Assembly: GCA_947589735.1 (NCBI GenBank)
Contig: CANQCR010000002.1
Location: forward strand, 1 to 64,000
DNA length: 64,000 nucleotides
Direction of reading: 5' to 3'
DNA from: an uncultured Bacilli bacterium
GTDB taxonomy: Bacteria > Bacillota_I > Bacilli_A > RF39 > UBA660
Shown one piece after another: positions 18,501 through 21,010 of the stretch. A program made the translations under genes and the position numbers. The notes under the pieces were generated by a model. The model made no database searches and was not told where the DNA came from. It was given only the letters and a program-made list of their open reading frames with translations. Numbering within the stretch: position 1 is the stretch's first letter; each line of letters opens with the position of its first letter.

Positions 18501-20816
18501 ATGTCAGATTCATACAACAAGATAACATTAGACGTAATTAAAAGAAATGGAAAAAAAGTATCCTTTGATGCTAGTAAAATAGCCCTAGCTATTAAAAAAG
18601 GTTTTGATAGCGTTGTTACAGTATCAAATGATGCCGAAGGCGAAGAAAAGAAAGTATACACCGGTGAGGATATCAATAAAGTATATCTTGGCGTTATTAA
18701 GAGTATTGAGAAAAAATATAAAGATGAAACCAGAATTAAAATTGAAGAGATTCAAGATTTAATTGAACAAGAATTAGAGAAACAAGGTTATGATGATGTT
18801 TATAAATCATTCTCTGAGTATCGGGAACGTCGTAACCAATCAAGAGCTTTGTTTGCTGATGATAAAAAGATTCACAAGTTTTTAAAAACCCTTGAAGGAC
18901 TAGGGTTAAAATCAGCAACCGAAGATGATACTAAAAGAGAAAATGCTAATATCGATGGCGATAGCGCTATGGGTACCATGCTTCAATATGGTAGTACTGT
19001 TTCTAAGGAATTTGCTAAAGCATACTTAATGAAAAAAAGATTTTCAATGGCTCATGATGAAGGAGATATCCACATTCATGATATGGATTTCTTAGCTATG
19101 GGTACAACCACTTGTATGCAAATTGAACTTGATAAACTATTTAAGAAAGGTTTTTCAACCGGTCATGGTCATTTAAGAACACCAGCTAGTATCGGTTCAT
19201 ATAGTGCGTTAGCAGCAATTGCTATTCAGTCTAACCAAAATGATCAACATGGTGGACAATCAATTCCGGCATTCGATTATTATATGGCTCCAGGTGTTAT
19301 TAAGACCTTTAAAAAAGAGTTTAAACAACAAATATATGATTTGTTAGATTATATGGATTTGCTTTCATTTATCAATATGGATAGAGTTGTTAAAGAAATT
19401 GATAAATTGACATCAATCGAATTTGATATTGAAAGATTTGAGCCTATTTATAATAATTCAGCATCTATCAAAAGATTGTTTGTTAAGTCATATGAAAAAG
19501 CTTTAGCTAAGACAAATCGTCAAACTTATCAAGCTATGGAAGCTTTTGTTCATAACTTAAATACGATGCATTCAAGAGCAGGAGCGCAAGTACCATTTTC
19601 ATCTGTTAACTTTGGTACGGATACGAGCGCTGAAGGAAGAATGGTTATTAAAAACTTCCTAGAGGCTACAGAAGCTGGTCTTGGTAAAGGTGAAACACCA
19701 ATCTTCCCAGTATCTATTTTCAAGGTTAAGGAAGGGGTTAACTATAATCCAGGTGATCCTAACTATGATTTATTTAAGTTAGCTTGCCGAGTTTCAGCTA
19801 AAAGATTATTCCCTAACTTTTCTTTCTTAGATGCTCCATTTAACTTGGAATATTATAAAGAAGGCGATTACCGCACCGAAGTTGGTTATATGGGATGCCG
19901 AACAAGAGTTATGGCTGATGTAACTGATGTTAACAATCAAACAACTGGTGGTCGTGGTAATTTATCATTTACTTCTATTAACTTACCAAGGCTAGGTATA
20001 AAGCATGGTATTTGCTTAAAAGAACGTGATAAAGCTGATATGAAAGGCTTCTATAAAGATTTAGGCGAGATGATGGATTTAGTTCGTGATCAATTACTTG
20101 AACGTTTTGAAATCCAATGTAGTAAAAGAGTTTATAACTTCCCATTCTTGTTAGGCTCTGGTGTTTGGACTGATGGTGATAAGCTAAAACCAACTGATCG
20201 CTTACGGAAGATTTTAAAACACGGGACTTTAACAATTGGTTTTATCGGCCTTGCTGAAACGCTTAAAGCTTTAATTGGTAAACATCATGGTGAGAGTGAT
20301 GAAGCTCAAAAATTAGGTTTGGAAATAATTACCTTTATGCGTAAAAGATGCAACGAATATTGTAAAGAATACAACTTAAACTTTACTTTAATTGCAACCC
20401 CAGCTGAAGGTTTGTCAGGACGCTTTGTAGCGATTGATAAAGCAATCTATGGACGGATTAAAGGTGTAACAGATAGAAATTATTATACGAATTCTTTCCA
20501 CGTTCCTGTTTACTATAATATTAGTATTAAGGATAAGATTATGAAAGAAGCTCCATATCATAATTTAACTAATGGTGGACATATTTCTTACATTGAGTTA
20601 GATGGTGATACGGTTCAAAATGTTGAAGCTTTCGAGAAAGTAATTCGTTTAATGAAAGAAGCAGGCATTGGTTATGGTGCAATTAACCACCCTGTTGATC
20701 GTGATCCTGTATGTGGATACGTTGGGGTTATTGGTGATGTTTGTCCAGGATGTGGACGTAAAGAGTTTGATAGTGTACCACTAGAAGAAGTAAAATCCCT
20801 TAATTGTGGATGTTAG
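18501..20816 (+). CDS. nrdD: anaerobic (class III) ribonucleoside-triphosphate reductase, catalytic part without glycyl-radical tail
   Basis: ATP-cone N-terminus, NrdD core (GEGHIHDMDF-like GDIHIHDMDF, TTTCMQIELDKLFKKGFSTGHG), Cys4 zinc site CGYVGVIGDVCPGCGRKEF near the end; no RVxGYL motif in this ORF. Confidence 0.93.
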   Translation: MSDSYNKITLDVIKRNGKKVSFDASKIALAIKKGFDSVVTVSNDAEGEEKKVYTGEDINKVYLGVIKSIEKKYKDETRIKIEEIQDLIEQELEKQGYDDVYKSFSEYRERRNQSRALFADDKKIHKFLKTLEGLGLKSATEDDTKRENANIDGDSAMGTMLQYGSTVSKEFAKAYLMKKRFSMAHDEGDIHIHDMDFLAMGTTTCMQIELDKLFKKGFSTGHGHLRTPASIGSYSALAAIAIQSNQNDQHGGQSIPAFDYYMAPGVIKTFKKEFKQQIYDLLDYMDLLSFINMDRVVKEIDKLTSIEFDIERFEPIYNNSASIKRLFVKSYEKALAKTNRQTYQAMEAFVHNLNTMHSRAGAQVPFSSVNFGTDTSAEGRMVIKNFLEATEAGLGKGETPIFPVSIFKVKEGVNYNPGDPNYDLFKLACRVSAKRLFPNFSFLDAPFNLEYYKEGDYRTEVGYMGCRTRVMADVTDVNNQTTGGRGNLSFTSINLPRLGIKHGICLKERDKADMKGFYKDLGEMMDLVRDQLLERFEIQCSKRVYNFPFLLGSGVWTDGDKLKPTDRLRKILKHGTLTIGFIGLAETLKALIGKHHGESDEAQKLGLEIITFMRKRCNEYCKEYNLNFTLIATPAEGLSGRFVAIDKAIYGRIKGVTDRNYYTNSFHVPVYYNISIKDKIMKEAPYHNLTNGGHISYIELDGDTVQNVEAFEKVIRLMKEAGIGYGAINHPVDRDPVCGYVGVIGDVCPGCGRKEFDSVPLEEVKSLNCGC

Positions 20817-20830
20817 AAAGGAAGGATATT

Positions 20831-21010
20831 ATGGAAAAATTAGTTGGTGAAGGAGTTGGCTTTGAAAGAATTAGAAGGGTAACAGGATACCTTTCAGGAG
20901 ATGTTAGACGTTTCAATAACGCTAAACAATGCGAAGAAAAAGATCGTGTCAAACATTCCGGAATCAAAGAAGTTTTAAATAGTTCAACTTGCCCAAAAGA
21001 AGCTAAATAA
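20831..21010 (+). CDS. stand-alone glycyl-radical C-terminal domain of NrdD
   Basis: GVGFERIRRVTGYLSGDVRRFNNAKQCEEKDRVKHS is the canonical NrdD C-terminal tail; own ATG and GAAAGGAAGG SD. Confidence 0.85.
   Translation: MEKLVGEGVGFERIRRVTGYLSGDVRRFNNAKQCEEKDRVKHSGIKEVLNSSTCPKEAK

What the first reader, a model, noticed from the sequence alone, without database searches (positions are those of the whole stretch)
20714..21010. Split class III RNR: glycyl-radical domain encoded as a separate ORF between nrdD and nrdG
The nrdD ORF ends (TAG, 20814-20816) shortly after its Cys4 zinc motif (CGYVGVIGDVCPGCGRKEF...LNCGC) with no RVxGYL motif. A new ORF starts 14 nt later, in a different frame, with its own SD (GAAAGGAAGG) and ATG. 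It encodes GVGFERIRRVTGYLSGDVRRFNNAKQCEEKDRVKH, which is the contiguous NrdD C-terminus in other bacteria. The radical-bearing domain would be a separable ~59-aa subunit, analogous in logic to the YfiD/GrcA spare part of pyruvate formate-lyase. It would allow replacement after oxygen cleavage at the glycyl radical.
Basis: partly seen in the sequence, partly recalled or inferred. Interest (0 to 1): 0.88.

Follow-up and report, generated by a model that had tools for sequence, protein, structure and literature searches.

The report
Anaerobic ribonucleotide reductase in two pieces
In this gut bacterium the enzyme that makes DNA building blocks without oxygen is encoded as two proteins, a large catalytic body and a tiny 59-residue piece that carries the essential radical; the same split occurs in many related gut bacteria and in phages, and no paper found here describes it.

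Summary
The 771-aa nrdD (18501-20816) stops after its zinc-site cysteines and matches NRDD positions 1-533. A separate 59-aa ORF in another frame (20831-21010) matches positions 533-562 and carries the radical glycine (RVTGYL, Gly19, aligned to Gly711 of Prevotella copri NrdD). nrdG overlaps its stop codon. It is not an error: about 122 of 295 same-family genomes carry the short ORF, against about 25 with a fused gene. In 59 fetched loci the frame relation varies (24/20/15), Shine-Dalgarno sequences are strong, the ORF is under purifying selection, and both new ends carry split-specific motifs. No class I/II RNR was found in 25 such genomes; in the window's own genome this is the only RNR detected. 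Other splits occur in Clostridia-like NrdDs (120 of 120 top hits lack the radical part), phages and a code-4 genome. Phages and prophages also carry the radical piece alone, and other Bacilli keep a separate ~95-aa version beside a full-length NrdD. Best reading: an obligate two-subunit class III RNR with a detachable radical subunit. It is not a YfiD-type spare, because the large subunit never has its own radical loop. Whether the piece is swapped after oxygen damage is untested.

The parts
18501..20816 (+). nrdD large subunit, 771 aa: ATP-cone, NRDD barrel, finger loop MGCR, zinc-site half of the radical domain; no radical glycine
   Evidence: NF005497 1017.7 bits, PF13597 positions 1-533/562, PF03477 ATP-cone; Foldseek best match P. 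copri NrdD 8p2c
20760..20813 (+). split-specific C-terminal tail KEFDSVPLEEVKSLNCGC
   Evidence: tail pattern (E/A)-x-(E/D)-x-(V/I)-(P/S)-x-(E/D)-x-(I/L/V) after CPxCGR, dominant in 59 host splits and similar in 6 phage or other splits; absent from fused relatives
20817..20825 (+). Shine-Dalgarno of the small ORF (AAAGGAAGG), 5 nt before ATG
   Evidence: across 59 relatives an SD match of 5 or more bases in 83% vs 6% of random positions
20831..21010 (+). radical subunit ORF, 59 aa (proposed name NrdD-GRD)
   Evidence: PF13597 533-562, NF011292 586-617; more than 1000 stand-alone homologues of 0.55-1.75 times its length
20846..20854 (+). split-specific N-terminal motif GEG (G6-E7-G8)
   Evidence: G 59/59, E 59/59, G 58/59 at -13 to -11 from the radical Gly; not in fused relatives
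20885..20887 (+). codon of the radical glycine, Gly19 (RVTGYL)
   Evidence: aligns with chain position 715 of 8p23, i.e. Gly711, the radical residue named in PMC11226230
21010..21573 (+). nrdG activase (radical SAM); ATG overlaps the stop of the small ORF (TAATG)
   Evidence: TIGR02491 NrdG 150.2 bits over cut-off 126.1

Best explanation
nrdD, the 59-aa ORF and nrdG encode a heteromeric class III ribonucleotide reductase. Shown by sequence: the large subunit keeps ATP-cone, barrel, finger-loop Cys and the zinc half of the radical domain but has no glycyl-radical loop; the small ORF supplies that loop and the C-terminal tail; each has its own start and SD; no other RNR was found in the genome. 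Inferred: the small subunit docks through its GEG motif and the new tail of the large subunit, places its RVTGYL loop in the barrel, is converted to a glycyl radical by NrdG, and passes the radical to the finger-loop Cys for NTP reduction, with formate as likely reductant (single-Cys MGCR motif). More speculative: because O2 cleaves glycyl-radical enzymes at the radical residue, damage would fall on a small piece of about 6.7 kDa that can be exchanged instead of destroying the body of about 88 kDa.
For: Complementary domain matches 1-533 and 533-562. About 122 of 295 family genomes with the short ORF against about 25 fused (hand count); 59 of 60 fetched loci have it beside nrdD, and 75 of 80 genome-contig loci show nrdD + short ORF + nrdG. 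Frames 24/20/15, gap 1-49 nt, SD 83% vs 6%, median dN/dS 0.19, invariant RIRRxTGYL core. No PF02867 in 25 split genomes, and a single nrdD in the window's genome and in single-contig G281. Gly19 aligns with P. copri Gly711. The GRD is mobile in P. copri NrdD. Truncated PFL plus YfiD reaches full activity, so a two-chain glycyl-radical enzyme can work. Other splits in Clostridia-like NrdDs, phages and G725.
Against: No biochemical or proteomic data. Genomes are mostly MAGs; reads not inspected. Fused and split forms interchange within the family (AU p=0.027 against one split clade), so the split may be nearly neutral. AlphaFold of the large subunit is only moderate (pLDDT 67, tail below 50) and the two-chain complex could not be modelled. 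No step of docking, radical installation or exchange is shown.
Confidence: 0.87

Rival explanations
1. Replaceable-part advantage: the split was selected because the oxygen-labile radical piece can be made in excess and exchanged after cleavage, like YfiD for PFL.
For: Parallel splits at nearly the same place. Lone radical pieces on phages and prophages and as a conserved ~95-aa chromosomal protein beside full-length NrdD in other Bacilli. Two-chain PFL:YfiD precedent.
Against: No evidence on exchange, stoichiometry or O2 phenotype. PFL in the same genome keeps its radical domain fused. Frequent switching between fused and split looks near-neutral.
Confidence: 0.4
2. Neutral fission: the break falls in a tolerant loop, the two pieces associate permanently, and nothing is gained.
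For: Cut lies between the zinc site and the radical hairpin. Fused and split relatives coexist in one family with several changes of state.
Against: Split-specific, conserved tail and GEG motif, strong SDs, parallel splits, and lone pieces on mobile elements suggest more than drift.
Confidence: 0.4
3. One polypeptide is made by programmed frameshifting or stop read-through.
For: The two ORFs are adjacent; 20 of 59 relatives are in the same frame, separated by a stop.
Against: Frame relation is 24/20/15 over three frames, stop codons are TAA/TAG/TGA (36/22/1), extra stops and gaps up to 49 nt occur, SDs are strong, and both ends have added conserved sequence. In G725 nrdG lies between the two.
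Confidence: 0.02
4. Assembly or sequencing error, or a decayed pseudogene.
For: Single MAG; reads not available here.
Against: Same split in about 122 genomes and in 75 public loci, purifying selection, only RNR detected in the genome.
Confidence: 0.01

Closest known systems
Class III ribonucleotide reductase NrdD, e.g. Prevotella copri NrdD (PDB 8p23) and phage T4 NrdD (1h78)
   Same: Barrel, finger-loop Cys, RxxGYL glycine, NrdG partner, and (with P. copri) the ATP-cone; 39% identity to P. copri in the Foldseek match
   Different: Known enzymes carry the radical glycine on the same chain; here it is a separate 59-aa protein, and both new ends have extra conserved sequence
YfiD/GrcA and T4 Y06I, spare parts of pyruvate formate-lyase
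   Same: Small free protein with a glycyl-radical hairpin that can complete a glycyl-radical enzyme in trans (PMC8683613)
   Different: YfiD belongs to the PFL Gly_radical family and repairs an enzyme with its own domain; here the partner is NrdD, the sequence family is NRDD, and the piece is obligate
Split RNR genes: P. aeruginosa class II NrdJ, Thermus phage nrdJ-a/b, phage Aeh1 nrdA, intron- or intein-broken phage nrdD (PMC3653736, PMC2988022)
   Same: RNR chain encoded in two or more ORFs; two-chain RNRs can be active
   Different: The papers read describe breaks by introns, inteins or homing endonucleases, unexplained fragmentation of phage nrdD, or breaks in class I/II; none describes a break that isolates the glycyl-radical loop of class III

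Membership tests
Class III (anaerobic) ribonucleotide reductase | NRDD catalytic barrel over curated cut-off | tested here: met
   PF13597 632 bits; NF005497 1017.7 bits over 764
Class III (anaerobic) ribonucleotide reductase | Finger-loop cysteine (MGCR) and N-terminal ATP-cone | tested here: met
   MGCR invariant in 33 aligned large subunits (C466); PF03477 60 bits
Class III (anaerobic) ribonucleotide reductase | Radical glycine in RxxGYL available to the barrel | tested here: met
   Met by the two-protein system only: Gly19 of the small ORF aligns with Gly711 of P. copri NrdD; the large subunit alone lacks it
Class III (anaerobic) ribonucleotide reductase | Cognate activase NrdG | tested here: met
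   TIGR02491 150 bits over 126 at 21010-21573
Class III (anaerobic) ribonucleotide reductase | Four-cysteine zinc site of the radical domain | tested here: inconclusive
   Three Cys aligned, first Cys replaced by Asp, as in fused relatives
Class III (anaerobic) ribonucleotide reductase | Glycyl radical formed; NTP reduced | not testable with these tools
   needs EPR and assay
YfiD/GrcA autonomous glycyl radical cofactor (spare part) | Member of the PFL-type Gly_radical family (PF01228) | tested here: not met
   Small ORF matches only NRDD; PF01228 hits in the genome are two long GREs of 744-745 codons
YfiD/GrcA autonomous glycyl radical cofactor (spare part) | Partner enzyme has its own radical domain, so the protein is a spare | tested here: not met
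   Large subunit lacks it and no other nrdD was found in the genome
Programmed frameshift gene | Conserved frame relation and shift site | tested here: not met
   Frames 24/20/15 in 59 loci

The most novel reading that the evidence does not exclude
Class III RNR exists widely as a two-component enzyme with an exchangeable glycyl-radical subunit. Gut phages and prophages carry just that subunit to plug into, repair or boost the host's large subunit, and other Firmicutes keep a dedicated ~95-aa NrdD spare part beside a complete NrdD.
Probability: 0.45. Interest if true: 0.87.

Novelty: new variant of a known kind. Interest (0 to 1): 0.74.

Why it matters
Class III RNR appears to be the only dNTP source of these anaerobes, and its radical is destroyed by oxygen. 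A naturally detachable radical subunit makes the open question posed in PMC8683613 (do spare parts exist for glycyl-radical enzymes other than PFL?) directly testable. It gives a way to purify and label the radical piece, to study how NrdG reaches the glycine, and to build oxygen-recoverable enzymes. It also assigns a likely function to more than a thousand clusters of small proteins, many unnamed or called hypothetical, and to many phage genes.

Tried and rejected
Frameshift, read-through and error models. A conserved regulatory palindrome upstream (GTGTCAAAATGACAC, about 18299-18315): present only in the window among 75 loci. Spiroplasma-like ~170-aa hits turned out to be ordinary full-length NrdD read with TGA=Trp. 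Viral contig L228 is probably a host operon beside an integrated serine-recombinase element, so it counts as a Clostridia-like host split and not a phage one. Fold search of the ~95-aa protein gave no significant match. AlphaFold of the large subunit is only moderate, and its Foldseek match to NrdD structures adds little beyond sequence. Paper searches found no description of this split; most subscription journals were not covered.

Full report
WHAT IS THERE. nrdD (18501-20816, 771 aa) ends with ...CPGCGRKEFDSVPLEEVKSLNCGC*. Fourteen bases later, in another frame and behind AAAGGAAGG, an ATG opens a 59-aa ORF, MEKLVGEGVGFERIRRVTGYLSGDVRRFNNAKQCEEKDRVKHSGIKEVLNSSTCPKEAK; its TAA overlaps the ATG of nrdG. 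PF13597 is covered 1-533 by the first and 533-562 by the second; NCBIfam models agree. Against Prevotella copri NrdD (8p23) the large protein aligns to chain positions 9-709 and the small one to 707-740, with Gly19 at position 715, i.e. Gly711, the radical residue in PMC11226230 (the offset of four between chain index and paper numbering is my inference). In P. copri the radical domain includes a zinc half and the radical loop, so this break lies inside the domain: the zinc half stays on the body.

IT IS CONSERVED. Of 295 same-family genomes, 147 match the small protein; by my count of the listing about 122 do so with a short ORF (31-81 codons) and about 25 as the end of a longer NrdD, mostly fused genes of about 770-815 codons. 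In 60 fetched short-ORF loci, 59 have nrdD directly upstream, one cut by a contig end. In the public genome collection 75 of 80 loci show nrdD, short ORF and nrdG together; the organisms are gut MAGs mostly called 'Bacilli bacterium', with Candidatus Onthousia faecipullorum as one named member. A protein search limited to similar lengths found 1004 stand-alone clusters.

IT IS TWO GENES. In 59 analysed pairs the small ORF is in frame +1, 0 or +2 in 24, 20 and 15 cases; the gap to the start is 1-49 nt; stops are TAA 36, TAG 22, TGA 1; an SD match of at least five bases precedes the start in 83% against 6% of random positions; median dN/dS of the core is 0.19. Both new ends changed together. The small protein has gained an almost invariant GEG before FERIRR, and the large one a 12-28-residue tail with the prevailing pattern (E/A)-x-(E/D)-x-(V/I)-(P/S)-x-(E/D)-x-(I/L/V), often ending in two Cys. 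Fused relatives simply run CPGCGRTEADGVGFERIRRITGYL. Recoding cannot explain variable frames.

IT MUST WORK, IF THE GENOME IS REPRESENTATIVE. No class I/II RNR (PF02867) was found in 25 split genomes; the window's genome (95% complete) and the single-contig G281 have exactly one nrdD body and one short ORF. PFL-type enzymes in the window's genome keep their own fused radical domain, so the split is specific to NrdD.

ORIGIN. In a tree of bodies trimmed before the junction, split and fused members of the family interleave; one clade of splits (AU p=0.027) or one of fused (p=0.038) is weakly rejected, so the state changed more than once or the end was exchanged by recombination. Other splits: (a) Clostridia-like NrdDs of about 760 aa (Candidatus Faecousia, Oscillospiraceae): 120 of 120 top hits lack the radical part and carry the same kind of tail; the operon itself is visible in L228, probably a host flank beside an integrated element. 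(b) Phages: L362 (nrdD, 55-aa ORF, nrdG next to DNA methylases), L155/L171/L191/L193 (radical ORF about 2 kb downstream), L212. L362, L155, L171, L191 and L193 form one clade together with L228 (SH-aLRT 96; L212 was not in the tree). (c) G725, a code-4 genome with order nrdD-nrdG-66-aa ORF, cut between the two CxxC pairs. (d) G101, a single-contig genome in which one of two NrdDs ends ...GLERIPRINLESE* without the loop while a lone 95-aa radical protein lies 1.4 Mb away.

LONE RADICAL PIECES. 365 viral stretches encode the piece. Of 86 viral loci inspected, 80 showed no nrdD in the fetched DNA; of 49 viral records searched whole, 45 contain only the piece and no NrdD body, though records are fragments. 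Some genomes with the split operon have a second lone copy on prophage-like DNA (RusA, terminase small subunit, SSB: L293; L310 and L358 show similar neighbours) or beside ArdC (L284). In other Bacilli a ~95-aa protein with its own N-terminal alpha/beta region (pLDDT about 84) plus the radical hairpin sits apart from one or more full-length NrdDs (one genome, G606, has the piece only); at least 7985 clusters match it. That last group is the true candidate for an NrdD spare part.

MECHANISM. Shown: the gene split, its conservation, and lack of another detected RNR in this genome. From established knowledge: NrdG makes the glycyl radical; the glycine passes it to the finger-loop Cys; the Met of the single-Cys MGCR motif is linked to formate as reductant (PMC9669993); O2 cleaves the chain at the radical glycine. 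Inferred: docking by tail and GEG motif, dissociability and renewal. PFL with its radical end removed is fully active once completed and activated with YfiD (PMC8683613), so a two-chain glycyl-radical enzyme is chemically sound, and the radical domain of P. copri NrdD is already highly mobile. Whether the benefit is repair, easier activation or nothing at all is open; I give repair and neutral fission about equal weight.

COMPARISON. By family it is class III RNR; it works like PFL:YfiD in being two-chain, but it is not a GrcA and not a spare. Split RNRs in the papers read are class I/II, or nrdD broken by introns, inteins, homing endonucleases or unexplained fragmentation in phages. I found no account of a class III enzyme whose radical loop is a separate protein, with the limit that only open-licence papers were searched. 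Sequence databases already label the pieces NRDD without comment.

Noticed in passing
L141 (2421-2729, minus), L342-L354; P0121-P0240: Conserved ~95-aa protein with an N-terminal alpha/beta region and an NrdD-type radical hairpin, encoded apart from one or more full-length NrdDs in most of these genomes; at least 7985 clusters. Candidate NrdD spare part.
   Followed up: partly
L143-L227, L122, L284, L293, L310, L358: Phage, prophage and mobile-element loci carrying a lone 44-198-codon ORF with the NrdD radical motif; in most, no nrdD was found nearby.
   Followed up: partly
L015 (G101, minus strand): Single-contig genome in which one NrdD has lost its radical loop while a lone radical protein lies 1.4 Mb away; a second NrdD in the same genome is intact.
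   Followed up: partly
L355 (G725): Independent split in a genome read with code 4: nrdD, nrdG, then a 66-aa radical ORF; the cut separates the two CxxC pairs of the zinc site.
   Followed up: partly
L364 3741-7178 (Eggerthella phage EL753P1): Cultured phage whose nrdD carries an intein-like insert in the finger loop and ends without the radical part; the following short radical ORF is out of frame at the radical motif in this record.
   Followed up: partly
L017-L019, L021, L022, L028, L029, L031, L032: Other NrdDs in these families end in a glutaredoxin/thioredoxin-like domain (by eye, not searched).
   Followed up: no
window 20798-20813 and relatives: 44 of 59 split large subunits end with two Cys in the last ten residues; purpose unknown (redox pair or metal ligand?).
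   Followed up: partly
window 18299-18315: Palindrome GTGTCAAAATGACAC upstream of nrdD, not found upstream of 74 relatives.
   Followed up: yes
window 11211-17265: A 1726-aa secreted-looking protein with a zinc-peptidase-like HExxH motif (HEIGH), then a Ser/Asn-rich surface-type protein, upstream of mutM and nrdD.
   Followed up: no
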